Shown here: positions 12,669 through 31,192 of the stretch, piece by piece
How positions within the stretch are numbered: the stretch's first letter is position 1
How the letters are laid out: the number at the start of each line of letters is the position of its first letter
DNA from: Planctomycetaceae bacterium
Lineage (GTDB): Bacteria; Planctomycetota; Planctomycetia; Planctomycetales; Planctomycetaceae
DNA length: 64,000 nucleotides
Assembly (NCBI GenBank): GCA_018699955.1
Contig: JABISG010000046.1
Location: 1-64,000, forward strand
Reading direction: 5' to 3'
Notes under the pieces: generated by a model
Told to the model about the DNA's origin: nothing
The model's input: only the letters and a program-made list of their open reading frames with translations
Databases searched by the model: none
Translations under genes and position numbers: made by a program

Positions 12669-13409
12669 TCAACACGTTTCACAGAACTCCGTTCGATGCA
12701 GATCGTTTGTTTGTCTGCGATCCACAGCGACTGCTTCCAACATCGTCGCTACGACAGCGATGTGGCCGTCGAATTCACGTTCTTGAATGTCACCGACGTC
12801 GCGAAGATCGGTACCTCGATAATAACACCCGAAGCGACCCTCTACAGAATCGAAAACTTCAATTTTCCGTGGCGCGAAACTCTCTCCGTTCTGACAGGCC
12901 TTATAAACGGCCTCCTTAATCGCCCAGTAAGTCATCGCAAGCCGGGAATCGGCTGATTTCAATCTCTCTTGTTCGGCTTCGGTGAACCACATCCGCAAGA
13001 ATCCTGGCTTGACCGTTTCCGGTATCGTCAAATCGACGCCGATCGAGATTCCCGGCTGAGTTGTTACGCCCACCAGGACGGCATGCGTTGAGTGTGAAAT
13101 CGATAGGCTGGCAGAAATCGGTTCACCACTGACGGTGACCGCCGGCCGCATGCCCCGACCTTCCGCATCCCGCGAGAGAATCTCGATCAATTCCAGCTTC
13201 GTTGCCGGCAGGACACATGCTTCGCGAATAAGGTGTTTGCTGAGCCAGCGTCCGCACAGCCATGCCTCGCGGCGGCTTCCGTCGCGCAGCAGATCGAGTT
13301 CACGTTTCTCTGCGACGGACAGCCACGCGCTCCCGCACAATTCGCATGCCGAGCGAAGCTCGTCGAATTGGGCGAATCGCTCAATGCGGCCGTTAGCTGG
13401 AACTGGCAT
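12669..13409 (-). CDS. 4'-phosphopantetheinyl transferase, Sfp type
   Basis: A 246-residue transferase that attaches the phosphopantetheine arm of CoA to carrier-protein serines. Seen motifs are SLSISHSTHAVLVGV (about 101-115), the magnesium-binding GVD at 124-126 (GVDLTIPE), FLRMWFTEAEQERL, and WAIKEAVYK (162-170; catalytic Glu and Lys). The length and the pseudo-dimeric layout fit the Sfp/Gsp class rather than the short AcpS. Its ATG lies inside the end of the synthase gene (17-base overlap), so the two are translationally coupled. The likely targets are the four ACP domains encoded at 21528-23267. Confidence 0.88.
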   Translation of the reverse strand: MPVPANGRIERFAQFDELRSACELCGSAWLSVAEKRELDLLRDGSRREAWLCGRWLSKHLIREACVLPATKLELIEILSRDAEGRGMRPAVTVSGEPISASLSISHSTHAVLVGVTTQPGISIGVDLTIPETVKPGFLRMWFTEAEQERLKSADSRLAMTYWAIKEAVYKACQNGESFAPRKIEVFDSVEGRFGCYYRGTDLRDVGDIQEREFDGHIAVVATMLEAVAVDRRQTNDLHRTEFCETC

Positions 13410-16400
13410 GAGCCGGAACCTCGTAGACGATAACGTTCTCGTATCCGTCCACCTTCAGAATGACCGCTCCATCGTCGCCAAACAGTGCGAAGTCAAAAAT
13501 GCCGCCGTTTCCTTCACGTCCCCGGAAATGGATATGCAGCTTGCATGTCTCGCCGGGCCTCGGACTGCGACCGAGTGACAGGCAATCGATGTGCGCAGGA
13601 ATCGACACGCAACCGGGTATCAAACACCACAGGAAGACACCGCTGGCGAAAAAGCAACCGTCGAGAAGTGCCGTCGGGATCACCCAGCCGTCGCCGTTCC
13701 GCTCTCCGGTCACCTCATCGGCCGGCGGGGCAATCAGCTGCGACCAGGCGTCGTGCTCTTGCATCTGAAACTGCCGAAACGTGCGGAAGATCGGTCCATG
13801 ATAAATCACTTTGTCGTCTTCGGGATACCAGGTGTTGATCCAGGTATCGGGTGGTTCCGGGAAAACGGCCTCCGGTGAAAACGGACCGCAATTCACTTCA
13901 GCACGGCATCGCAGATAAGGCTGATTCGGTTTCAGTACCTTCCCACCGCGATTTTTGAAGTCGGCAGTGAATTCACACTGCAGACCGTCGCTCCCGCCTG
14001 TCACATTCAGCCGCGCGGTCAGCGGATCATCGGAGAGAAATCGTAAACCGTTCAGAATCTCAATGTCCTTCAATTCACACACGCGGCCCTCTTCACCGAC
14101 GAGCAGCGATGCCGCTTCAGCGAGCGATTCGAGCGTCATTACCACCGGCATCATCGGCCGCCCCTTGTAGCGGTGCTGACGCAGAAACACATCGGACGCA
14201 GGATTGAGAATCACCTCAGCCCTCAGCGACTCTCCCGGAACGACATCCGGCAGGGCATCGACCATCGGCATCGATTCGAGCCCCGAGTTTCCAGATGTTA
14301 CCGCTACCGGCTTCTCATTGGCGTAGTTGCTTTGGCAATAGGAAAGTTCCGTTATTACGATTTCGCCTTCCGGCAAGCCGGCACGCATTTCGTTCGTGAG
14401 ATGATCGACGCCTTCCAGCGACGGCATGAAGACGATGTTGTGCAGCTTGGCGATGTGCTTGGACTCGGGCCGAACCGCCATGCCGACGTCGTCCCAGGCA
14501 TGCCAGTGGAATACGGCCGCCGGACAATCGCTGCGCTGACGACGGAACCAGTCGATCAGCTTCGCAACCATTTCGTTTGCCACGCAGTAATCGGTCTGGC
14601 CAACGCCGCCGAATCGTCCACTGACCGATCCGAACGCGGCAAAGTAGCGAAGCGGGTCCTGCATCGTCAGTTCCATTAGTGCCGCAGCACCATCAACCTT
14701 GGCGGCAATCGTGCGATCGACAAGATACTGCTGTTTCTTCTCAAAGCGACAGGCCCGCTCGAATCCGGCACCGTGAATCACTCCCTGAATCGGGCCGTCG
14801 GCAGCGCGAACAGTGTTGAGCAATCCCGAGAGCGCATCGCGGTTGCTGATGTCGCAGGAATGGTAGGTCGCTTGAATGCCATCGTCGGCAAACGATTTTA
14901 GCGTCCGGGCTATTTCGAGCGACTTTTCATAGCGAGCCCAGGTGTCCATCGGTTTTTCACCGTTGGCCAAGCCTTCCTTCATGACCGTGGTGCGCAGTTC
15001 CTTGGTTTCCTCTTCCGACAGGTCAAGGTAGGCATCCGGCACGTTGGGGACAGGACTTGAACCGATCAGATGCAGCTTCGCCCCGTACTTCTCACCCAAT
15101 TGACGAGCGACGACTGCAGTAACGCCTCGCGCTCCGCCTGTGATGACAAACGTGGCACCGTGCGGAATCTCATTGGCCGGTCGCGTCGCAACCGATTCGA
15201 CAACGGGACGCGGCAGGCAGCGTTTTCCATTGTAGTAGCCAACTTCGACTTCATTGTCGTCGGCTGCCAACTCGCGGCAGAGCAGTTCGGCCACATCGGT
15301 CGCTGACGCCTGAGCGGTTGAATCGACGATCTTCGTCCGAAATCGATCCTCGCGAACCTGCATTTTCAATTCCAACGCGACGCCCTTGAGCAGACCGGCG
15401 ATCGCTCCGCTTTCCACGTTCGGCAGACCGCTGGAGAATCCAAAGTCGCCACCCATTGTCGTCGCGGCGACGAGCGAGGCTTCGCCAAGTTGTTTGGCTT
15501 TCGCAACCGATTCATACCATCGCTGACAAACAAGGTACGGGACCATCACGCCGCGCGTTCGCCGACGATTCCAACTCTCCGCATCGAGTGCAGTGACGGC
15601 ATCCTCGTCGTATGGTGTCATCAGGAATAGATGCAGTGGCTGACTTGTGCTGCAGATCGTCTCCAACTGCGACAAGATGCCCTCAATATCGTCGCCGGTT
15701 GGCAGCAGCGACACCTGTGTGCCTTGCTGTTCCAATCGTTGTTTTAATGCGACCGCGGCCGCATTGTCACCGAGGATTAACGCCGGCCCGTTCCGCGTGG
15801 AATTGGGTTGCGAATTGGGCGGAAGCGAGGCTTCAACAACCCGCATGACGAACCGACTGCAAACTCCCGAATCGGTCGGCGAGACGGCATACGCGTCGGC
15901 GAATTCTTCCGCTGAGAGAATCTCATCAACGCGAGTCTTTGGGCTGCCGTTGTTGTGATCGGCCGCAGTTGCCGTCGATTTCAACTCCGGCAGCAAATCG
16001 TGCAGATCGAGTTTGGTGAACTGGTTCTGGTGGCCGTTGGACATTGGTCCGCCGGTCACCCACAGTTGACCTTTTCCGGGCTGCATGACGACGCTGATCT
16101 GATTGTCGATGCGGCGGATGGTGTTGATCGTTGGCGATGAGACTTCTTGTCCGCGCGACGGATCAAAACGATCGCGGAGAGCATCGTGCACATCCGAAAG
16201 ACTGACATGCGACGCTCGGTCGCCGTCGAGCAATTCTTTCAGCCGATTGAGTCGGTGTTCCGAATGCGATGGCAAATCGCGAGCCGTTTCGTAGAAGTTC
16301 ATTAACAGGCGATGATTGGCAGCAAAGATAGATGGCATTGCCGGTTGGACTTTGAGGTTGGTTCCATCCCATTCAACGTAACAGACGCGATCTTCCGCTT

Positions 16401-19400
16401 CGCGGCTGATGCAAAGCCCCCACGTGCCGCCCGCCGACGTTTGGAATTCATGGATAATTTCAACGGCCGAATCAATGTCCTTTGCCTGCTCCAGCAACTG
16501 CCTGACCAGCAGCGTGTGGAGTCGCCCCTGTTGGGATACGGACTCTTTGGGGATGTCGGCGAGTGTCGCCGTGCTGATCGCCAGGCCGCAGCCGTTGATA
16601 CCGCTGAGGCTCCCCACTTGCCCCGCGACACCGAAAGTCACGTAGGGCAAAGTGCCATCGGGTCGGCGAACCTGAATACTGCGTGCGAGGCAGTCGCCCA
16701 GTCGAACACTTTTGGAAAGGTCTTCGTTTGCTGCGTGCAAAAGTCCGGTTTCGGGACTGGCTTCTGCGGAGAGAGCAAAATGCACGCCACCAACTTCCGC
16801 GTCGTAGAACAGTCGCAAGTTGTGAGCGATCACACTCGCCTCGGTGACATCAGCCCCTTTGGCGATGCCACGTAATTCTTCCAATTCTTGTGGACCAAAG
16901 AAGACTTCCGGTTGTCGGACTGCGTCATCGAGATTGAAAAGTTTTTCCCATCGCGAACCGGCGAGATCGGCGTAGCGGCGGAGAATCGTCCGGATTTCGT
17001 CGCGGTGCGTCTTGCCGTGTTGGAGTCCCATTTCGTAGGGCGAACCGGAAAGTCGATCGACGTTCAGGACGCTTTTGTGCGAAACGTCCTGTGTGTCTTC
17101 TGCCGCGGGCGACTTGTCGGTTAATGCGGCGACTGCCGAGACCCTGACACTGCGGTCTTCCGATTGAGAATCAAGTGCACCGGTCGTCTCGACACATGCG
17201 CGTGCGTAGAGCAGTTGTGCCATGCCGCTGCGTTTCGGATGGTCGCAACCAACCAGTGCGAGATCGCGGTCGGCGAGCGCCTGCCTGTTCAATCCGGTCA
17301 ATACCTGCCGAGGTCCGACTTCCACAACGACCGTGACGCCTTCATTCGCCAATCGCACGGCCAAGCCGCGCCAATCGACGGGCTGCGTCATCTGAACAAC
17401 CAGATTTTCGCGGACGTCTGCCGGGTCGGCCACGTACTTGTTTGTCACACTACTGAGTAACGGGATCTGCGGCGGCTCCACCGGAATCTGCTGAAGAGAG
17501 GCACGGAACGGATCTTTGACCCCTTCCATCAGCGGCGTGTGAAACGCGGCCGGGACATCGAGGATCTTTGTCTTGAACCCCTGGTCCTCGGCGGTTTCGG
17601 CAAGCTTTCGAACGGCCTGTTCGTCACCACCGGCGACAGTTTGCTCCGGAGCATTGAGATGGGAAACCGAAACTCGTCCTTCGGTTTTCTTGCACAGCCG
17701 ATCAAGAGTTTCTGCCGGAGCGGATGTTGACACCATTATGCCATTGTCGCCATCGCAGGCATCAATCGCTGCGCAGCGTGCGCGTGTCGCGAGAATGGCT
17801 TCATCAAACGTCCACGAACCGGCTGCTGTCAGCGCGGCCAATTCGCCGAAACTATGCCCGGCGACGCGATCGGCTCGCAATCCGATCGCCGTAGCAGCCG
17901 CATAAACAATTGTGTCGGCGGCAAGCAGCGACAACTGCGTTCGGCAGACGTCACTTCCTAATCCGTTGTCCTTCTGCCATGCCAGTTCGGCAAACGATGG
18001 CAGGTTGAGTCGCGATAGCACGGCATCGACTTCACGCATTGCTTCAGCGGCTGGAGCGAACTCCGCGACGAGCGACTGCAGCATGCCGTCGTATTGCGAT
18101 CCCTGACCGGGAAACACGAAAGCAACTTTAGGACGCTGTGAACTGGTCTCACCGTAAAAGATGCCCTTTTCGCCTAACAATTGGCGTGCTGCGGGACGGC
18201 CGAGTTGAGCGCCGGCCATCTTGAGTTTCGCCGCCAAATCATCCGCACTTTCCGCAACGATTGCCAATCGGAATCGGTCGGCAGGTTGAAACGAAGTCGC
18301 ATCCGCTGCTTCGTACAGTTTTCCGGCTTGAGCGATTTGTTGTGTTGCCCGTTCGCCGAGTGCCGACATCGATGAATCGACCAGACGAACGATGCGCCAC
18401 GGCGACAGAATTCCCGCGTTGGCGGTTGCAGGTGCGGACTTCACAATCGCCGACTGCGGCTTCTCGGCTTGCGGGATTTCTGTTCCGCCTTCAACAACAA
18501 CGTGGTACGCCAAATCGAATTGCGAGTATGTGCTGACGCCGGCCAATCCATGCTGTCGCGAATTGACCACTCGAACCGGGGTATCGGCCTCGGCAAGCCG
18601 GAGCATTTTGGCGTTGGCCTGAACGTAATCGGCCGGGTGAGCCGGTCCAAAGTTGCCGGGGATCTCACCGTGATTCAACTCGGTGACCGCCTTCATGATT
18701 TCGAGAATACCGGCTGCGCCGCAGGTGTTGCCGATTTGTCCCGCCAGAGCGCCGACCCGCAATTCATCACTGCGGCTGTCTGAAGCATAGGCTTCGGACA
18801 GTCCGGCAAACTCTGATCGATCGGCCGCCGGCAGGCCGGACGATCCAGACTCGACGACCGCGATTTCTTCGGGACTGACGCGAGCCGCTTCCAACGACCG
18901 CTTCGCAGCACGATGAACGCCTTTTTCCAGCGTCTCACCTCGGGCGGCAGCAATGCCTCGGATCACCCCATGAATTTTGTCGCCGTCACGCTGGGCGTCG
19001 GAAAGTCGCTTCAGAATGACAACGCCAACACCTTCTCCCGGGACGTAGCCCGACGCATCGGCATCGAACGGACCTTTCGGATCGTCGGTTTGCGACAACA
19101 ATCCGAGTTTCGCCATGAACTCATAAATGGACAGCCCCATTTCGCGGTGACCGGTCGCGCAGAGCATCATGTCGCAGTCGCCGGCTCTCAGCAGGTCGAT
19201 CGACGAAGCCAAGGCCGACATCGCCGAGGTGTTCCCCGAATCGACGGCTGTCGCACCGCCCATTAGATCAAACGTCTTTGTGATCCGCGAAGCGAGCGTG
19301 CTGGACGTGAAGCTTCCGGTTTCGTCAACCAACGCCGGCATATGCTTCAACAGGATCTTTTCATACTTCGCGGCGACGTCGTCGATATCAGCGTCCGGAA

Positions 19401-21339
19401 TTCCACGGTCGCGAAGAATATCGGCAAGCATCATCTTGAATTCGGGCAGCCGCAATCCCATGTTGAGCTGGCTGGAAAACTCGCCACAGAAAATGGTGCC
19501 GACGATCACGCCGGTTCGGCTCTTGTCGAATTCTCGTTCGTCGAATCCGGCATTCTTCAGCGCCTGATCGGCTGCATCGAGCAGCATGAACTGCAGTGGA
19601 TCGGCACTGGAAATCTGCTTCGGCGGAACTTTGTGCCGCTTCCAATCGTATGCAAAATCGGAAATGAATCCGCCGGTTTTTGTGGGTACCCGCCACAACT
19701 CGTTGGAATTCGGTTCGTGTCCGTAACGGGGGTCCCAACGCTCCGGCGGAACTGCACTTTTCTGATCTTCACCGGAGTGAATGACGTCCCATAATGCATC
19801 GATGGTCCGCGCTCCTGGGAGAACAGCGCCCATACCGATGATGGCAATGCCCTCTTCTTCGACGTCCGTCGCTGCGTTCTGCTCGGTTGGTGTGGCAATC
19901 AGTTTGCGGCTGACTTCGGGCAGATGTTCGTCGAGGACGACATGCACATTCAACCCACCGATGCCGAAGGCATTGACGGCTGCGCGCCGCGGACTGTCCG
20001 GTGCCGGTGAGGGCCAGGCCGTCGTTTCTTGCGGGACGTAAAACGGGACGTTTTCCCAATCGATCTTTTCGTTCAGCTTCTTGATATTGATCTGTGGAGG
20101 AATCGTTGCGTGCTGCATTGCCAGCACGGTTTTCAACAGGCTGGTCAAGCCGGCCGACTCCAGCGTGTGTCCGACGTTGGCCTTTACGCTGCCGACGGCC
20201 ACCTTTTTCCCGGTCGGCAGAACGTCCTTGAGGACACGTGTCAGGGCGTCGATTTCCGTCGCATCACCGACCTGCGTTGAGGTGGCGTGCATTTCGATGT
20301 ATTGCAGATCGTTCAGTGACAGGTCCTGTCCATAAGCGCGGTGAATCGCTTCGACTTGGCCTTCTGCCCGCGGAGCCCAAAGGCTCTTACCTTTTCCGTC
20401 CGATGAAATGCCGATGCGGCGGATGACTGCCTGAATGGGATCGCCGTCAGCCATTGCACGATCGAGCGTTTTGAGCACCACCGAGATATAGCCCTCTGCG
20501 GCGACGAGTCCGTCGGCGTCGTTGTCGAACGGGCAGGTTCCATTGTTCGCGCTGACCGATTGGGCCTGCGAGAAGAGAACCAGCGTGTCGGCGTGGCAAT
20601 ACGAGGCACCACCCACAATCGCCATGTCGATTTCGCCCAACTGCAGCGCGCGGGCGGCATGTCCCAATGCACGCAGCGACGAGGCGCAGGCGGCATCAAA
20701 GCACATTGAAGGGCCGCTGAGATTGAAGCCTTCGGAGATGACTGATGCCGCGCGATACGCGCTGGCCTGCGTTTGCAATCTTCGGTCGTCGCGCTGAAAG
20801 TCGGCGCGGACCCGGCCGATAATTTCCTTAATGATGGCATCCTGCGCGCCGCCGGTGAGTTCATCGAAATTGGGAATCTCGCGCAGATATTGAGCCGTTT
20901 GCTCTATCAGACGAGCGTAAACGGCGTCGCCCGAAAGTGAACTGGGCGGGGTGTGTCCGATGTAGACGCCGACGTCCATCGACGGCGACAACGCAAATGG
21001 ATCGAGACCGGCATGACGGCAAGCGGAAGCGGCCACCTCGCAGAGCAGCAAATGCACGTCGTGCGATTGATCGATCAATCGCTGCGGGATTGGGCACGCT
21101 TGGTGATCGAACGGTTTGTTAGTCACCACGCCGCCGATCGATGCATACGACTTATTCAGCATCCCCTTTTCGGGATGGTAGCGCATCTCGTGATCGAATC
21201 GTTCGGGAGGAAGCTGGCCCAACTGGCTGCCTCCTTCTGCCAGCAGCGTCCAGAATTCATCGAGGTTATCGGCACCGGGCAACCGACAGGCCATACCCAC
21301 AATTGCCAGCGGAATGTCCGCAATGTTTTGCTTCGTCAT
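13393..21339 (-). CDS. Iterative lipid/polyketide synthase: KS-CLF-AT-C45-KR-DH
   Basis: 2648 residues. Domains in order are as follows. KS about 8-475, with an intact triad C218 (DAACASS), H351 (MHATST) and H391 (NVGHTLESAG). A second KS fold about 495-955 has all three positions changed (N703 in DSGNTSA, G832, N871 in IGNTCGAAG), like a chain-length factor. AT about 1070-1385, with S1163 (GHSFGE) and H1267. A C45/penicillin-acyltransferase-like domain about 1425-1785 (GSPYEMGLQHG, LLHAANEDL, GSLSGINGCGLAIST, AANHRLL) has no cysteine between 1511 and 1549, where the nucleophile belongs. KR with its structural half about 1850-2335 (ITGGARGVTA, Y2251). DH about 2375-2640 (H2389-x3-G-x4-P, D2560). 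There is no ACP, ER or thioesterase domain. KS-CLF adjacency and the KR motif resemble Pfa-type PUFA/secondary-lipid synthases. The product is unknown. Confidence 0.9.
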   Translation of the reverse strand: MTKQNIADIPLAIVGMACRLPGADNLDEFWTLLAEGGSQLGQLPPERFDHEMRYHPEKGMLNKSYASIGGVVTNKPFDHQACPIPQRLIDQSHDVHLLLCEVAASACRHAGLDPFALSPSMDVGVYIGHTPPSSLSGDAVYARLIEQTAQYLREIPNFDELTGGAQDAIIKEIIGRVRADFQRDDRRLQTQASAYRAASVISEGFNLSGPSMCFDAACASSLRALGHAARALQLGEIDMAIVGGASYCHADTLVLFSQAQSVSANNGTCPFDNDADGLVAAEGYISVVLKTLDRAMADGDPIQAVIRRIGISSDGKGKSLWAPRAEGQVEAIHRAYGQDLSLNDLQYIEMHATSTQVGDATEIDALTRVLKDVLPTGKKVAVGSVKANVGHTLESAGLTSLLKTVLAMQHATIPPQINIKKLNEKIDWENVPFYVPQETTAWPSPAPDSPRRAAVNAFGIGGLNVHVVLDEHLPEVSRKLIATPTEQNAATDVEEEGIAIIGMGAVLPGARTIDALWDVIHSGEDQKSAVPPERWDPRYGHEPNSNELWRVPTKTGGFISDFAYDWKRHKVPPKQISSADPLQFMLLDAADQALKNAGFDEREFDKSRTGVIVGTIFCGEFSSQLNMGLRLPEFKMMLADILRDRGIPDADIDDVAAKYEKILLKHMPALVDETGSFTSSTLASRITKTFDLMGGATAVDSGNTSAMSALASSIDLLRAGDCDMMLCATGHREMGLSIYEFMAKLGLLSQTDDPKGPFDADASGYVPGEGVGVVILKRLSDAQRDGDKIHGVIRGIAAARGETLEKGVHRAAKRSLEAARVSPEEIAVVESGSSGLPAADRSEFAGLSEAYASDSRSDELRVGALAGQIGNTCGAAGILEIMKAVTELNHGEIPGNFGPAHPADYVQANAKMLRLAEADTPVRVVNSRQHGLAGVSTYSQFDLAYHVVVEGGTEIPQAEKPQSAIVKSAPATANAGILSPWRIVRLVDSSMSALGERATQQIAQAGKLYEAADATSFQPADRFRLAIVAESADDLAAKLKMAGAQLGRPAARQLLGEKGIFYGETSSQRPKVAFVFPGQGSQYDGMLQSLVAEFAPAAEAMREVDAVLSRLNLPSFAELAWQKDNGLGSDVCRTQLSLLAADTIVYAAATAIGLRADRVAGHSFGELAALTAAGSWTFDEAILATRARCAAIDACDGDNGIMVSTSAPAETLDRLCKKTEGRVSVSHLNAPEQTVAGGDEQAVRKLAETAEDQGFKTKILDVPAAFHTPLMEGVKDPFRASLQQIPVEPPQIPLLSSVTNKYVADPADVRENLVVQMTQPVDWRGLAVRLANEGVTVVVEVGPRQVLTGLNRQALADRDLALVGCDHPKRSGMAQLLYARACVETTGALDSQSEDRSVRVSAVAALTDKSPAAEDTQDVSHKSVLNVDRLSGSPYEMGLQHGKTHRDEIRTILRRYADLAGSRWEKLFNLDDAVRQPEVFFGPQELEELRGIAKGADVTEASVIAHNLRLFYDAEVGGVHFALSAEASPETGLLHAANEDLSKSVRLGDCLARSIQVRRPDGTLPYVTFGVAGQVGSLSGINGCGLAISTATLADIPKESVSQQGRLHTLLVRQLLEQAKDIDSAVEIIHEFQTSAGGTWGLCISREAEDRVCYVEWDGTNLKVQPAMPSIFAANHRLLMNFYETARDLPSHSEHRLNRLKELLDGDRASHVSLSDVHDALRDRFDPSRGQEVSSPTINTIRRIDNQISVVMQPGKGQLWVTGGPMSNGHQNQFTKLDLHDLLPELKSTATAADHNNGSPKTRVDEILSAEEFADAYAVSPTDSGVCSRFVMRVVEASLPPNSQPNSTRNGPALILGDNAAAVALKQRLEQQGTQVSLLPTGDDIEGILSQLETICSTSQPLHLFLMTPYDEDAVTALDAESWNRRRTRGVMVPYLVCQRWYESVAKAKQLGEASLVAATTMGGDFGFSSGLPNVESGAIAGLLKGVALELKMQVREDRFRTKIVDSTAQASATDVAELLCRELAADDNEVEVGYYNGKRCLPRPVVESVATRPANEIPHGATFVITGGARGVTAVVARQLGEKYGAKLHLIGSSPVPNVPDAYLDLSEEETKELRTTVMKEGLANGEKPMDTWARYEKSLEIARTLKSFADDGIQATYHSCDISNRDALSGLLNTVRAADGPIQGVIHGAGFERACRFEKKQQYLVDRTIAAKVDGAAALMELTMQDPLRYFAAFGSVSGRFGGVGQTDYCVANEMVAKLIDWFRRQRSDCPAAVFHWHAWDDVGMAVRPESKHIAKLHNIVFMPSLEGVDHLTNEMRAGLPEGEIVITELSYCQSNYANEKPVAVTSGNSGLESMPMVDALPDVVPGESLRAEVILNPASDVFLRQHRYKGRPMMPVVMTLESLAEAASLLVGEEGRVCELKDIEILNGLRFLSDDPLTARLNVTGGSDGLQCEFTADFKNRGGKVLKPNQPYLRCRAEVNCGPFSPEAVFPEPPDTWINTWYPEDDKVIYHGPIFRTFRQFQMQEHDAWSQLIAPPADEVTGERNGDGWVIPTALLDGCFFASGVFLWCLIPGCVSIPAHIDCLSLGRSPRPGETCKLHIHFRGREGNGGIFDFALFGDDGAVILKVDGYENVIVYEVPAHASSS

Positions 21340-21527: not shown

Positions 21528-23267
21528 TCAGGCGGTGACTCTCTGTGGAGCTCCCTCAAGAAACTTCATCACGTCCCTGAGCGTTGGAAAGTCGTCGAGC
21601 GACAACTCCTCGTCCGACTGAACGTTCACCTCAAACTGCTCGGCCAATTCGCCAAACAGCTGCGCCTTCTTGATGCTATCGATGCCCAAGTCGGATTCGA
21701 GGTCAGCGTCCATTTCGACCATCTCCGGTGGGTAACCGGTCTGCTCGACGACAAAGTTGACTAGAAATTCTTCCAGCTCCACACCACTCATCGCAGCACC
21801 GGCTGGCGGTGTCGATGACTCGGAAACCGAGGGACTTTCAGAGGAAGGACTCGGGGGTGGAGTCGGTTGACTGGAAACAACATCGCTCTCGGCCGGTGGC
21901 TGCGTTGCGGACTGAGAATTCCCTTGCAGGAATTCCTTCACGTGCCGCAGTGTGGCAAAATCGTCCAGCGAAAGATCGTCTGCCGATTGCATATCGATCG
22001 TAAACTGTTCGGCCAATTCACCGAAGAGTTGTGCCTTTTTGATACTATCGATTCCGAGATCGCCTTCGAGATCGGCGTCGAGTTCGACCATCTCTTCGGG
22101 ATAACCCGTCTGCTCGACAACGAAATCGATGAGGAACTTTTCCAGGTCAACGTCGTTGAGACTGGTTCCGGCCGATGTTTCGGCTGCTGCAACCGGTGAC
22201 GTTGTTTCGGCAACGGGAGCTTGCACGCGTGCCTGTGCAACCGGCTCTGGTGTCGATGCCGCGACAGTCGTCGATGATGCGCCTTCGAGAAACGCCATCA
22301 CGTCTCGCAATGTTGCGAAATCGTCGAGCGAGAGATCGTCTGCCGACTGCATATCAATCGTAAACTGTTCGGCCAATTCACCGAAGAGTTGCGCCTTCTT
22401 GATACTGTCGATACCGAGATCGGCTTCGAGGTCCGCATCGAGTTCGACCATTTCCTCGGGGTAGCCGGTCTGCTCGACAACAAAGCCGATCAAAAACTTT
22501 TCCAAGTCTGCGCCGTGAGGAACCGAAGTTCCCGTGGATGCGACTTCGGCCGATGCCGGCTCAATTGCCGTCGGAGCAATTTCAGTCTGAACGGGAGCAG
22601 CAGCAACGGGTGCGGGAGTGACAACAGACGGAATCGGTTCCGGGGCAGGAGATGTTTCCGTCGCCGCTCCGGAGCCAGCCGACTCGAGGAAGCTTTTCAC
22701 ATGTCGCAACGTGGAGAAGTCGTCCAACGAAAGTTCGTCGGCCCCCGCGACATTCACTTCAAATCGCTCGGCAAGTTCGCCAAACAGTTGAGCTTTCTTA
22801 ATGCTGTCGATGCCGAGATCGCCTTCGAGGTCGGCATCGAGTTCGACCATCTCTTCTGGGTACCCGGTTTGTTCGACGACAAATTCGACCAGAAACTTTT
22901 CGAGTTCCGGGCCAGCGGGCATAGCCGCCGAACCGTTACTTTGTGGCGAACCATTTCCCTGCGCTGAGCCGTTGCTGTTTGGGGCAGCCACCGGGGCGAC
23001 AGGTTTCGCAGCCGCCGGGTGGGCAAAGGCACCATTGTTTTTGGGTGTTGCGGCGGGAGCAGGAGCTTGGGCCACTGGTTGTGTTGGCGCAGTCGGCGGT
23101 GCGACGGCTGTTGTCTCAGGCTGCTGCGTCTTAGGCTCCGCTGTCGCCTGGAGTCGCATTTTCTCCTTGCGACGCACTGTGGCATCAAAATGCACAATCC
23201 GCGAACCAGTTTGGCCGTTTGATGACTCTTCGGCCGACAAAGCAGAACGATCGATTATGGTACTCAC
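21528..23267 (-). CDS. Tandem acyl carrier protein (four ACP domains)
   Basis: From the chosen start the protein has 579 residues. A disordered N-terminus rich in Ala, Pro, Gln and Asn is followed by four ACP domains joined by Ala/Pro/Thr-rich linkers. Each carries LGIDSIKKAQLFGELAE, with phosphopantetheine serines at 155, 288, 408 and 531. ACP2 and ACP3 are almost identical (EQFTIDMQSADDLSLDDF in both), whereas ACP1 and ACP4 share FEVNV. Tandem ACPs with LGIDSIK are the hallmark of PUFA-type synthases, where copy number raises output. Here they form a separate protein that would serve the ACP-less synthase in trans. The frame is open from a GTG at 23363; I prefer the GTG at 23267 because GGAG lies 7 bases upstream. 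The start is uncertain. Confidence 0.88.
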   Translation of the reverse strand: MSTIIDRSALSAEESSNGQTGSRIVHFDATVRRKEKMRLQATAEPKTQQPETTAVAPPTAPTQPVAQAPAPAATPKNNGAFAHPAAAKPVAPVAAPNSNGSAQGNGSPQSNGSAAMPAGPELEKFLVEFVVEQTGYPEEMVELDADLEGDLGIDSIKKAQLFGELAERFEVNVAGADELSLDDFSTLRHVKSFLESAGSGAATETSPAPEPIPSVVTPAPVAAAPVQTEIAPTAIEPASAEVASTGTSVPHGADLEKFLIGFVVEQTGYPEEMVELDADLEADLGIDSIKKAQLFGELAEQFTIDMQSADDLSLDDFATLRDVMAFLEGASSTTVAASTPEPVAQARVQAPVAETTSPVAAAETSAGTSLNDVDLEKFLIDFVVEQTGYPEEMVELDADLEGDLGIDSIKKAQLFGELAEQFTIDMQSADDLSLDDFATLRHVKEFLQGNSQSATQPPAESDVVSSQPTPPPSPSSESPSVSESSTPPAGAAMSGVELEEFLVNFVVEQTGYPPEMVEMDADLESDLGIDSIKKAQLFGELAEQFEVNVQSDEELSLDDFPTLRDVMKFLEGAPQRVTA

Positions 23268-23387
23268 CACGACGCTCCGTGATTTGGATGGAAAAACAAT
23301 TGTTGCCCCGGCTGACGACGGTCCAGTCGTAGCCCCCCAGCTTTTTTCGGGAACAGCGAGCACAGCCGCTGCCCGACGTAAATCAAA

Positions 23388-24914
23388 TTAACTCTGCTTC
23401 GGCTGTTCGTGCGGCTTGGCAGCCACACCCTGCAAAATGTCAGCAAGTTTGCCGAGAGGAACACCGTTCCCCTCAATCAGCACGCCCCCAGTGTTAATCA
23501 GGTGGTTGACGTTCGACTGTCGAGTCGCCAACTTCTTGAATGTGTTTGAATTCAAATAGTACGTGGCAGTGCAGCGTTCACTGAGCCCTTGCGACGCGGA
23601 GACGATCTGTCCGTCCCGCAGCGACAACTCCCACTGCCCGCCTCCCTCGCCATTCACTTGAAGCCCCAGGAAGGTGTCGCCTTCCGTCTTGGATTCGGCA
23701 GTCAGATCTGTCAATTCCTGCAGATGTTCATGGACGTCGAATTGCAATTTCACTGCAGGTTCGCGCGGCCATCCAAAATTCGATTCAATCGCGAACCGAC
23801 ACATCATTGTGAACATCTCTTCGTCGAGGTCGGGACAGGGAAGATCCGGCGCGGCTCGACGCGTGTTGGCGTCGTCAAACAGCGGATCGTCGCCCCAGTA
23901 CGATCGGTAAACGCCCATTCCTTCGAGAAAGAATTGCTCAAACTCCGCCCAATCGACTTTGGCGTCGGAATTCTGGCCCTTTAATTCTTCGCGATGTTGG
24001 AGTGTGTATTTCAGAATCACCTCTTCCATGACCGTCTGGAACAACTGCACCGGGACGCGCGAACGCGGTGTTAAGTGGTAGGTCTCGTTGTGCAATTCCG
24101 GCTCGACATAGACGCGGGCCATCATTTCCGAGACCCAATCGACCGGAACGAAGTTCTTCGCCTCTTTGCCGTCGAGCTGAAGAATCGTTCGCAACCGAGC
24201 ACCAGCCATACGAATTCCCTGCTCAGCCGCTTCCGGCGAAGCGCTGGCAGCAGCCGACTTCATCGTCAACGATGCCACCAGTTTCAGCGGCACGTAGAAA
24301 CCGTGATAGGTGGACGTATAACCCGTCTTGGAGTCGCCCAGAATGATGCCGGGGCGGTAGACCGTGACCGAATCGAGGAAGTCGGCTTCGCGGACCATCG
24401 TCTCCGATTGAAACTTACTGATCTCGTAGTCGTTGCCGTGCTTTTGGCCGACATCGAGTTCGCCTTCCAGAACACGGTCGCGGCGCTGACCGCAAACGTA
24501 GGCCGTCGAAACGTGATGGAATTCGCGAATTCCAACCGACTTGACGAACTGGAGCACATGACTGGTGCCGTGCAAGTTTGATCGCCACGGTTCCGATTCC
24601 GGACTTTCGGCCTGAAACGTGAGGCTGGCGGCGTTATGCATTAACGCGCTACAGTTTTGAGCAACCCAGGAACGCGAGGCATCGTCGAGACCCAAATTGG
24701 GTTTCGAGAGATCCCCCTCGAAGACCACCGGGCGCTCAATCGCGTGCCCCGCTTGCTTCTCCCAGCGCGCAACAGAACTTTCAATGCGATGCTGCGCCGA
24801 TGCAAATCGCGTCGGCCGCACCAACACTGCCAGCTTTACGCCCCTACGCGACAGATCGCGTATGAGATATGATCCCAGCAGCCCGGTGGCGCCGGTGAGG
24901 AAAAGGTAGGACAT
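23388..24914 (-). CDS. Acyl-thioester reductase-like SDR with C-terminal SCP2-like domain
   Basis: A 508-residue protein, first gene of the cluster. Residues 1-370 form an extended SDR of the male-sterility/thioester-reductase (NAD_binding_4) type: FLTGATGLLGSYLIRDL, a catalytic Y163-x3-K167 (YEISKFQSE), STAYVCGQRRD and VYRPGIILGDS. Residues about 395-500 look like an SCP2/sterol-carrier lipid-binding domain (FLGLQVNGEGGGQWELSLRDG ... NTGGVLIEGNGVPLGKLADIL, quoted in parts). Such SDRs reductively release carrier-bound acyl chains as aldehydes or alcohols. The synthase has no thioesterase, so this is the best candidate for chain release, with the SCP2-like part holding the lipid. Both roles are inferred. 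The start at 24914 begins exactly at the Rossmann strand. Confidence 0.8.
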   Translation of the reverse strand: MSYLFLTGATGLLGSYLIRDLSRRGVKLAVLVRPTRFASAQHRIESSVARWEKQAGHAIERPVVFEGDLSKPNLGLDDASRSWVAQNCSALMHNAASLTFQAESPESEPWRSNLHGTSHVLQFVKSVGIREFHHVSTAYVCGQRRDRVLEGELDVGQKHGNDYEISKFQSETMVREADFLDSVTVYRPGIILGDSKTGYTSTYHGFYVPLKLVASLTMKSAAASASPEAAEQGIRMAGARLRTILQLDGKEAKNFVPVDWVSEMMARVYVEPELHNETYHLTPRSRVPVQLFQTVMEEVILKYTLQHREELKGQNSDAKVDWAEFEQFFLEGMGVYRSYWGDDPLFDDANTRRAAPDLPCPDLDEEMFTMMCRFAIESNFGWPREPAVKLQFDVHEHLQELTDLTAESKTEGDTFLGLQVNGEGGGQWELSLRDGQIVSASQGLSERCTATYYLNSNTFKKLATRQSNVNHLINTGGVLIEGNGVPLGKLADILQGVAAKPHEQPKQS

Positions 24915-28268: not shown

Positions 28269-29705
28269 ATGTTTTCGATTTTCGGTCGATCGGCGCGGAT
28301 GTGCGATTCGTGGTCGCGACGCGAATTGTTGACGATGGGCGGGTTGTCGTTGTTCGGCCTGGGACTGCCGGAATTGTTGACGCAACGTGCGGCAGCGAAA
28401 CCGCAGCGTCAAAGCATCCGCCGCGATGGTTTCGGCAGCGCCGATTCGGTCATCCTCGTGTTCCTGCAAGGCTCGCCGAGCCACATCGACCTGTGGGACC
28501 CGAAACCGGAAGCCCCCGCCGAGATTCGTGGCGAGTTCAAACCGATTGCCACCTCGACACCGGGGCTGTTTGTGGGCGAAGTGCTGCCGATGCTTGCACA
28601 GCAGGCAAAACATTTTAACCTGGTGCGATCGATCGGCGTTGATCCCAAAGGACTGCGGAATCACGGGGCGGCCATCTACATGCTGATGACCGGCCACGAT
28701 CCACGAAATTTCTCGCCCACCGGGTTGGCGGTGCCTCCTTCGCGTGAAGATTTGCCGTCGGTCGGCGCAGTCGTCGCGCGTTACAAGCCGGCCGAACAGG
28801 GGCGATTCAATAATATTGCCGTCGGCGCGTCGGTGAAAGAAGGAAGAGAAGTTGGTGTCGGTCAAGGTGCCGGACTGTTGGGCGGTGCCTACGATCCCTA
28901 CACCATGTACGACGATGCCACCAAGCCGCTCAATCCACAGGGGTTCGCACTGCCGGCCGACATGTCGCTCGAACGGCTGCAGTCGCGCGTCGATTTGAAG
29001 GCGATTATTGAAACGCGGACGCAGTCCGAAGCGGCGTCGTTCGACGCCTACTACGACACGGCTCTCTCATTGATTCAATCGAACCGTGCGGTCAGAGCGT
29101 TTCGCTTGCAAGACGAGGCAGCCGAAACACGCGAACGTTACGGCAAGACACAATTCGGACAAAGCTGTTTGCTGGCCCGCCGGCTGATTGAAGCCGACAC
29201 GCGATTCGTGCAGGTGACCTGGCCGGCCCGCTCCGACGACGAACCGGCGCCCGGTCCGGACGGCTCGTGGGATACGCACCGCAATAATTTCCCCATGCTC
29301 CGCGACCACCGCTGCCCGGTCTTCGACCAATCATTATCGGCGTTGATCGAGGACATGGCCGCCCGTGGCTTGCTCGAAAAGACGATGGTGGTCGCCATTG
29401 GCGAGTTCGGCCGCTCGCCAAAAATCGGATCGCCGACAACAAACAACGTCGGCCCCGGTGGTCGCGACCATTGGCCGGAGTGTTACAGTTTCCTCATCGC
29501 TGGCGGCGGTGTGCAGCCCGGCGCCGTCTACGGCGAATCGGACCGTCACGGCGGCTGGCCGAAAAACGACGCCGTTCATCCCTACGACCTCATCGCGACA
29601 ATCTACCACGCCCTGGGCATCAACCCCAAAAGCGTCTACCACGACACCCTGAACCGCCCACGACGGTTGGTGCAGAGTGGCATGCCAGTGCTGGGGCTGT
29701 TTTGA
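28269..29705 (+). CDS. DUF1501 protein with Tat-like signal
   Basis: A 478-residue member of the DUF1501 family, which has an alkaline-phosphatase/sulfatase-like fold and is hugely expanded in planctomycetes. The N-terminus has a twin-arginine motif, SRRELLTMGGLSLFGLGLPELL, in which RR precedes a hydrophobic stretch, implying export in folded form. Family signatures are [68 protein letters not shown] and GGRDHWPECYSFLIAGGG. It has no adjacent PSCyt partner on its own strand, unlike the other DUF1501 genes here. Its 3' end converges with the next gene, with only 23 bases between. Confidence 0.85.
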   Translation: MFSIFGRSARMCDSWSRRELLTMGGLSLFGLGLPELLTQRAAAKPQRQSIRRDGFGSADSVILVFLQGSPSHIDLWDPKPEAPAEIRGEFKPIATSTPGLFVGEVLPMLAQQAKHFNLVRSIGVDPKGLRNHGAAIYMLMTGHDPRNFSPTGLAVPPSREDLPSVGAVVARYKPAEQGRFNNIAVGASVKEGREVGVGQGAGLLGGAYDPYTMYDDATKPLNPQGFALPADMSLERLQSRVDLKAIIETRTQSEAASFDAYYDTALSLIQSNRAVRAFRLQDEAAETRERYGKTQFGQSCLLARRLIEADTRFVQVTWPARSDDEPAPGPDGSWDTHRNNFPMLRDHRCPVFDQSLSALIEDMAARGLLEKTMVVAIGEFGRSPKIGSPTTNNVGPGGRDHWPECYSFLIAGGGVQPGAVYGESDRHGGWPKNDAVHPYDLIATIYHALGINPKSVYHDTLNRPRRLVQSGMPVLGLF

Positions 29706-29728: not shown

Positions 29729-31192
29729 TCAAACGCCCGTTGCTGCCTGAACGGGCCGTTCCAACACGTCGGCCACCACCTTGGCCGGGCGGTTGTTGGT
29801 GATGATTTGCTTTTGGCCGTTGAAGAAGAACTCCAACTGTTTATGGTCGAGGCCGAAGAGGTGTAGGAGGGTGGCCTGATAGTCGTTGGGGGTGACGATG
29901 TTGGTGACGGCTCGGTGGCCGACTTCGTCGGTTTCACCGTAGGTCATGCCCGGTTTGATGCCGCCGCCGGCGAGCCAGATGCTGAAGCCCTGGCCGTTGT
30001 GATCGCGGCCCGCTTTCTTCGGGTTGGCGTTACTTTGAGTAACCGGCAGCCGGCCGATTTCTCCACCCCAATGCACGATGGTGCTGTCTAACAGGCCGCG
30101 TTGCTTGAGGTCTTTGACCAAGGCGGCGGCCGGCTTGTCGGTCCGGCGGCAGATGCCAGGCAGCGCGGTGGCAATGCTGTTGTGATTGTCCCACGGCTGC
30201 CCGCCGTGGAAGAGTTGCACGAATCGCACGCCGCGCTCGATGAGGCGGCGGGAAATGAGGCAGCGGGTGCCGTACTCGCGAGTGGTGGGTTGGTCGAGAC
30301 CGTACAGTTCCTGTGTCGCTTTGGTTTCCTGCGAGATGTCGAGCGCCTCGCGGGCGGCGGTTTGCATGTGCGCGGCAAGTTCGTAGCTGGCAATTCGAGC
30401 TTCGAGGTCGGATTCACCGGGGTGACGTTCCAGGTGTCGACGGTTGAGCGTTTGCAGTAAATCGAGATTCTGCCGTTGAACTTCGCCGCGCAGGTGGGGC
30501 GGGGCATCGAGGTTGAGAATGCGCGGCTCTTTGGGACGCAGCACGGTTCCCTGATACAGCGATGGCATGAAGCCGTTCGACCAGTTGGTGACGCCATCGA
30601 CCGGCAGTCCGCCGGGATCGGTCAGTACCATGTAGGCGGGCAGTTCCTGCGTTTCCGAGCCGAGCGCATACGTCAACCACGAGCCGAGCGTCGGCCGGCC
30701 GAGTACGCCGGGAATGCCGCCGTGGAAGTAACGAATCGAAACTTCGTGGCCGTTGGCGCCGGTGTGCATCGAGCGGATGAGACAGATGTCGTCAACGATT
30801 TCCGCCAGATGTGGAAGGATTTCCGAGACCTCGGTTCCGCATTCGCCGTGCTTCTGAAATTTGAACGGGCTGGCGAGTAACTTCTTGCTGGCCTGATTGA
30901 CGAAGCTGTATTGGATGTCGCCTTTGAAATCCATGCCGCCGCGTTTTTGCAGTTCCGGCTTGGGGTCGGTCAGGTCCATGTGGGCCGGTCCGCCGTGCTG
31001 AAACAACGAGATCATCGCCTTCGCTTGCGGCTCGAAATGCGGCTGCTTTGGCTTGAGGTTGAGGTGCGCGGTTTCGCTTTCGATCCCCTTGGGCTTTGCC
31101 AGCAGGTTGTCCTGGTTGAGCAGCCAGGCGAGCGCGACCGAGCCGATGCCCATGGCGTTTTCGGCGAGGAATTGTCGACGAGTAGGAAGCAT
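29729..31192 (-). CDS. DUF1501 protein, partner of the PSCyt/PSD1 gene upstream
   Basis: A 487-residue DUF1501 protein with an N-terminal twin-arginine motif (TRRQFLAENAMGIGSVALAWLL) typical of the family. Further signatures are AMISLFQHGGPAHMDLTDPKPE, EYGTRCLISRRLIERGVRFVQ, TIVHWGGEIGRLPV and AGRDHNGQGFSIWLAGGG. It is the second gene of a minus-strand pair with the large cytochrome-type protein at 31314-34457 (121-base gap filled by a palindromic repeat). In planctomycetes these two families almost always occur as such pairs and are suspected to act together on polysaccharides or other extracellular polymers; the reaction is not known. Confidence 0.87.
   Translation of the reverse strand: MLPTRRQFLAENAMGIGSVALAWLLNQDNLLAKPKGIESETAHLNLKPKQPHFEPQAKAMISLFQHGGPAHMDLTDPKPELQKRGGMDFKGDIQYSFVNQASKKLLASPFKFQKHGECGTEVSEILPHLAEIVDDICLIRSMHTGANGHEVSIRYFHGGIPGVLGRPTLGSWLTYALGSETQELPAYMVLTDPGGLPVDGVTNWSNGFMPSLYQGTVLRPKEPRILNLDAPPHLRGEVQRQNLDLLQTLNRRHLERHPGESDLEARIASYELAAHMQTAAREALDISQETKATQELYGLDQPTTREYGTRCLISRRLIERGVRFVQLFHGGQPWDNHNSIATALPGICRRTDKPAAALVKDLKQRGLLDSTIVHWGGEIGRLPVTQSNANPKKAGRDHNGQGFSIWLAGGGIKPGMTYGETDEVGHRAVTNIVTPNDYQATLLHLFGLDHKQLEFFFNGQKQIITNNRPAKVVADVLERPVQAATGV

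What the first reader, a model, noticed from the sequence alone, without database searches (positions are those of the whole stretch)
15985..17067. Penicillin-acyltransferase (C45/Ntn) domain embedded in a megasynthase, without its cysteine
Synthase residues about 1425-1785 follow the C45/AAT fold blocks (GSPYEMGLQHG, LLHAANEDL, INGCGLAIST, AANHRLL). No cysteine lies at 1511-1549, where the self-processing nucleophile should be (GGVHFALSAEAS). An acyltransferase-fold domain between AT and KR is not a standard PKS element. It may bind the acyl chain or replace a docking or release domain.
Basis: partly seen in the sequence, partly recalled or inferred. Interest (0 to 1): 0.82.

Follow-up and report, generated by a model that had tools for sequence, protein, structure and literature searches.

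The report
Nucleophile-dead penicillin-acyltransferase domain inside planctomycete PKS
A giant lipid-building enzyme from a planctomycete bacterium carries, built into its chain, a complete domain of the penicillin-acyltransferase family whose catalytic cysteine has been replaced by glycine; close relatives of the enzyme keep the cysteine and may therefore cut themselves in two, which makes the natural dead version a ready test of what the domain does.

Summary
Residues 1425-1785 of the 2648-aa synthase (window 15985-17067, minus) are a full-length C45/AAT domain (NCBIfam C45_proenzyme 139.6 bits, cut-off 85; predicted fold matches penicillin acyltransferase at Z 30). Sequence and structure both put Gly1518 where the nucleophile cysteine belongs; the partner Asp1540 and Asn1675 are kept. 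It is not a freak. The same domain sits before the reductase domains in over 30 planctomycete synthases of the order KS-KS(CLF-like)-AT-[ACP]n-C45-KR-DH. The cysteine was lost in two clades. In one (9 rows, several double-KR) the rest of the site decays too. In the window's clade (9 rows, support 100/98) only Cys became Gly, while the rest of the site stays conserved. In that clade the ACPs lie outside the C45 chain; some of its genomes carry a stand-alone Cys-bearing copy. Most likely the window's domain is a pseudoenzyme that holds the acyl chain or carrier protein, release having passed to the neighbouring thioester reductase. That Cys-bearing relatives cut themselves is inferred, untested. 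No published description was found.

The parts
13393..21339 (-). Iterative type I synthase, 2648 aa: KS - KS2 (CLF-like, no Cys) - AT - C45 - structural KR - KR - DH
   Evidence: Open frame; Pfam domains; domain map against relatives; catalytic motifs
15985..17067 (-). C45/AAT (Ntn hydrolase fold) domain, residues 1425-1785
   Evidence: PF03417 34.5 bits; NF040521 139.6 bits full length; model Z 30.2 to 2x1c
16786..16788 (-). Gly1518: position of the nucleophile Cys (Cys103 of penicillin acyltransferase), changed to Gly
   Evidence: Alignments, PDB profile match, structural alignment starting at model residue 94
16720..16722 (-). Asp1540, retained active-site Asp (Asp121 of penicillin acyltransferase)
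   Evidence: Invariant in the 9 Gly-type and 17 Cys-type fused copies; aligned
16315..16317 (-). Asn1675, retained active-site Asn (Asn246 of penicillin acyltransferase)
   Evidence: Invariant in Gly-type and Cys-type copies; aligned
19900..21339 (-). KS1, active Cys present (DAACASS)
18460..19884 (-). KS2, Cys absent (DSGNTSA), chain-length-factor-like
17140..18159 (-). AT domain (GHSFGE)
14350..15939 (-). Structural (psi) KR and catalytic KR
13396..14289 (-). DH domain
21528..23363 (-). Separate gene with four tandem ACPs, which in Cys-type relatives mostly lie inside the synthase just before the C45 domain
   Evidence: Pfam PP-binding, 4 stretches; domain map
23388..24914 (-). Thioester reductase with C-terminal SCP2-like domain, likely chain release
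   Evidence: PF07993 160.7 bits, PF02036
12669..13409 (-). Phosphopantetheinyl transferase
   Evidence: PF01648
10176..12598 (-). Two Rieske oxygenases of the same gene cluster
   Evidence: PF00355, PF00848
9261..10025 (-). FabG-like SDR of the same gene cluster
   Evidence: PF13561

Best explanation
The domain is a built-in, long-standing part of a planctomycete family of iterative lipid/PUFA-like synthases, and in the window's clade it is a pseudoenzyme. Shown by sequence: most fused copies carry the domain after the ACPs with an intact Gly-Cys; the window's clade has Gly instead of Cys but keeps the rest of the site. Follows from known Ntn chemistry: without the N-terminal Cys it can neither cut its own chain nor form an acyl-enzyme, so this synthase stays in one piece. 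Inferred: in Cys-type relatives the domain takes the finished chain from the adjacent ACPs onto its Cys and hydrolyses it or passes it to an acceptor; in the window's clade the ACPs lie on their own gene, release passed to the neighbouring thioester reductase, and the domain was kept as a non-catalytic pocket or docking surface for the acyl chain or ACP.
For: Full-length C45 match and fold. Same place in over 30 synthases. Cys invariant in 17 fused copies, Gly invariant in 9; of 36 columns invariant in the Cys type, 26 hold the same residue invariantly in the Gly type, including Asp1540, Asn1675, His1676, Arg1696, Arg1699. One Cys-to-Gly event, clade support 100/98. Constraint: dN/dS 0.066 for C45 against 0.048-0.065 in the other domains for L035/L052; in close pairs of the decaying clade 0.12-0.15 against 0.02-0.10. 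ACPs outside the C45 chain in all Gly-type loci; L055 and L198, which keep Cys, branch next to them (81/79, weak) and also have separate ACPs. Local thioester reductase wherever the upstream flank of a nucleophile-less locus is complete.
Against: No function was tested. Some Cys-type loci (L037, L055, L063, L065) also have a local thioester reductase, and several without one have a reductase elsewhere in the genome, so 'release handed over' is a soft association and not phylogenetically independent. Purifying selection may reflect only structural need in a long chain. The model is of moderate confidence (pLDDT 74). dN/dS rests on one Gly-type pair near saturation (dS about 2).
Confidence: 0.55

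Rival explanations
1. Purely structural spacer: the domain only holds AT and KR apart or supports dimerisation, and its pocket has no ligand.
For: It is always kept between AT/ACP and KR, even in the decaying clade where Cys and most other site residues are gone.
Against: In the window's clade the pocket residues Asp, Asn, His and Arg stay invariant across sequences that are mostly only about 45-55% identical, unlike in the decaying clade.
Confidence: 0.2
2. Division of labour in trans: the catalytic step moved to a stand-alone Cys-bearing C45 protein, and the fused dead copy recruits it or pairs with it.
For: Stand-alone ACP-like + C45 proteins with Gly-Cys occur in G152, G394, G396 and G400, whose synthases are Gly-type or of that layout, and in none of the 14 Cys-type genomes searched; in the trees they group among Cys-type fused copies, which suggests excision from a synthase.
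Against: Not found in the window's own genome (95% complete), nor in G392, G393, G395 or G519 (98% complete). Three of the four carriers are of one genus. The companion gene is not next to the synthase.
Confidence: 0.15
3. The domain is still catalytic through another residue or a water nucleophile.
For: Asp and Asn of the site are kept.
Against: No conserved Ser/Thr/Cys near the nucleophile position; Gly at the N-terminal position of an Ntn strand leaves no side chain.
Confidence: 0.05

Closest known systems
Acyl-CoA:isopenicillin N acyltransferase (Penicillium, PDB 2x1c/2x1d; MEROPS C45)
   Same: Same fold over the whole length (Z 30.2, 328 residues, 21% identity), same pro-segment and aligned Asp and Asn
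   Different: Stand-alone and self-cleaving with Cys103; here fused in a synthase and Gly at the nucleophile
NCBIfam NF040521 C45 family autoproteolytic acyltransferase/hydrolase
   Same: Scores over the curated cut-off, full length
   Different: The autoproteolytic Cys is missing in the window; the other members seen outside this group here are not in synthases
Acid ceramidase and NAAA (precursors and mature forms)
   Same: Fold match of the precursors Z 26-27.6; both act on fatty acyl amides (general knowledge)
   Different: Lysosomal stand-alone enzymes with Cys
PUFA (Pfa) and heterocyst glycolipid (Hgl) synthases
   Same: Iterative KS, CLF-like KS, AT, tandem ACPs, KR, DH; TIGR02813 PfaA matches the synthase, though below its cut-off; a thioester reductase also occurs in hgl islands (PMC11804610)
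   Different: The word search of the Pfa survey PMC3098273 gave no mention of a penicillin-acyltransferase part, and the planctomycete types listed there have other layouts

Membership tests
C45 / AAT (Ntn hydrolase) family | Profile match over curated cut-off | tested here: met
   PF03417 34.5/23.2 bits; NF040521 139.6/85 bits
C45 / AAT (Ntn hydrolase) family | Ntn alpha-beta-beta-alpha fold | tested here: met
   Predicted model, Z 30.2 to 2x1c, rmsd 3.3 over 328 residues
C45 / AAT (Ntn hydrolase) family | Catalytic, self-processing Cys | tested here: not met
   Gly1518 in its place. So: a homologous domain, not an active C45 enzyme
C45 / AAT (Ntn hydrolase) family | Active-site Asp and Asn | tested here: met
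   Asp1540, Asn1675
C45 / AAT (Ntn hydrolase) family | Acyltransferase or amidase activity | not testable with these tools
   Needs purified protein
Pfa/PUFA-type iterative synthase | KS, CLF, AT, tandem ACPs, KR, DH | tested here: met
   ACPs on the neighbouring gene
Pfa/PUFA-type iterative synthase | NCBIfam PfaA model over its cut-off | tested here: not met
   701.7 bits against 1010.1; a relative, not a PfaA
Pfa/PUFA-type iterative synthase | Product is a long-chain polyunsaturated fatty acid | not testable with these tools
   No product known

The most novel reading that the evidence does not exclude
The Cys-type relatives are self-splitting megasynthases: their embedded C45 domain cuts the polypeptide at Gly-Cys into a KS-KS-AT-ACP half and a KR-DH half that stay bound through the Ntn domain, with the new N-terminal Cys acting on the ACP-bound chain; the window's clade is the natural uncut, nucleophile-dead version that kept the pocket for chain or ACP binding.
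Probability: 0.35. Interest if true: 0.85.

Novelty: new variant of a known kind. Interest (0 to 1): 0.62.

Why it matters
It adds an Ntn/C45 domain to the known parts of fatty-acid/polyketide megasynthases, suggests a synthase that matures by cutting itself, and provides natural live and dead versions side by side. Comparing the two would show directly whether the domain releases chains or only holds them.

Tried and rejected
Alternative nucleophile (Ser/Thr/Cys near 1518): none conserved. Sequencing error or pseudogene: Gly in nine separate domains, frame open through the domain. Chance match: excluded by scores and fold. Release handed to thioester reductase as a strict rule: rejected as strict, since 4 of about 10 Cys-type loci with usable flanks also have a local reductase and others have one elsewhere. 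Companion as an obligate partner: rejected as strict. Nine literature searches found no description of a C45 domain in a synthase, but the library holds open-licence papers only.

Full report
What is there. The minus-strand frame 13393-21339 encodes a 2648-aa synthase with KS, a second KS, AT, KR and DH domains. Residues 1425-1785 match Pfam AAT (34.5 bits, cut-off 23.2) and NCBIfam C45_proenzyme (139.6 bits, cut-off 85, positions 1-312 of 313). An AlphaFold model made from eight family members (pLDDT 74, pTM 0.81) is closest to penicillin acyltransferase, precursor and mature forms (Foldseek E 2e-16; Z 30.2, 328 residues).

The nucleophile. In the alignments most fused relatives read PGC[STAV]QFA or close to it where the window reads VGGVHFA. 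Independently of sequence, the structural alignment to mature NAAA, acid ceramidase and penicillin V acylase, whose chains begin at the nucleophile, starts at model residue 94 = Gly1518. There is no Cys at 1511-1549, and no conserved Ser/Thr replaces it. Asp1540 and Asn1675, equivalent to Asp121 and Asn246 of penicillin acyltransferase by the profile alignment (roles from general knowledge), are kept.

The family. Searches of whole genomes and of genome contigs found the same domain at the same place in over 30 synthases, nearly all planctomycetes; two (L066, L068) come from MAGs whose titles name no phylum. The common order is KS - CLF-like KS - AT - ACPs - C45 - KR - DH. In the family of the window, 23 of 170 genomes carry a match at E 1e-40 or better (stand-alone copies included).

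Two losses. On a tree of 43 rows the three states (Cys, Gly, lost) need only two changes. In one clade (9 rows, 95/93; most with two KR pairs) Cys went together with Asp and other site residues in most members, and in close pairs the dN/dS of the C45 part is about one and a half to eight times that of the other domains. L070, with Thr at the nucleophile position and a long branch, was left out of that tree; its first placement is uncertain. In the window's clade (9 rows, 100/98) only Cys became Gly. There 63 of 345 gapless columns are invariant, and of the 36 columns invariant in Cys-type copies 26 keep the same residue. For the only close Gly-type pair, L035 and L052, dN/dS of C45 is 0.066, like its neighbours; dS is near saturation, so this is indicative. 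The window's copy is thus a conserved pseudoenzyme, not debris.

Surroundings. The window's cluster has four ACPs on a separate gene, a thioester reductase, a phosphopantetheinyl transferase, two Rieske oxygenases and an SDR. All Gly-type loci have no ACP in the C45 chain; L055 and L198 share separate ACPs but keep Cys and branch beside the clade with weak support (81/79), which suggests, but does not show, that the ACPs left first. Nucleophile-less loci with a complete upstream flank all have a local thioester reductase; Cys-type loci have one in about 4 of 10, and others have one elsewhere in the genome.

Companions. Stand-alone proteins with an ACP-like N-terminus and a Cys-type C45 domain occur in G152, G394, G396 and G400 and in none of the 14 Cys-type genomes; they group among Cys-type fused copies. 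The window's genome and several other Gly-type genomes lack one, and three of the four carriers belong to one genus, so this is a lead only.

Mechanism. C45 enzymes cut themselves before the Cys and then use it to take up acyl groups (general knowledge). In the Cys-type synthases all 17 fused copies keep the Gly-Cys pair, so self-cleavage of the synthase and acyl transfer from the ACP are predicted; neither is shown. In the window's clade both are ruled out by the missing nucleophile if Ntn chemistry holds, and the preserved pocket argues for chain or ACP binding. Release is most simply assigned to the thioester reductase. All functional steps are inference.

Known or new. The fold and family are known; their place inside a synthase, with live and dead clades, was not found described in nine searches of an open-licence library, which is limited evidence. 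I call it a new variant of a known kind.

Noticed in passing
18460-19884: The second KS of the synthase lacks its active Cys (DSGNTSA), CLF-like; so do all relatives checked except L066 and L068, whose second KS keeps it.
   Followed up: partly
L038:9330-10820, L057, L060: Stand-alone C45 proteins begin with an ACP-like domain; in L038 and L057 the phosphopantetheine Ser is replaced (FIDGCMQ).
   Followed up: partly
L157:4816-11997: G394 has a second Gly-type synthase in which no AT domain was detected, next to a KS-KS protein.
   Followed up: no
L198:3196-13872: A synthase with a doubled KS-KS pair (KS1-KS2-KS1-KS2-AT-C45-KR-DH), Cys-type, with ACPs on a neighbouring gene.
   Followed up: no
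23388-24914: Thioester reductase with a C-terminal SCP2/alkyl-sulfatase-like domain.
   Followed up: no
28269-29705 and 29729-31192: Two DUF1501 genes side by side on opposite strands.
   Followed up: no
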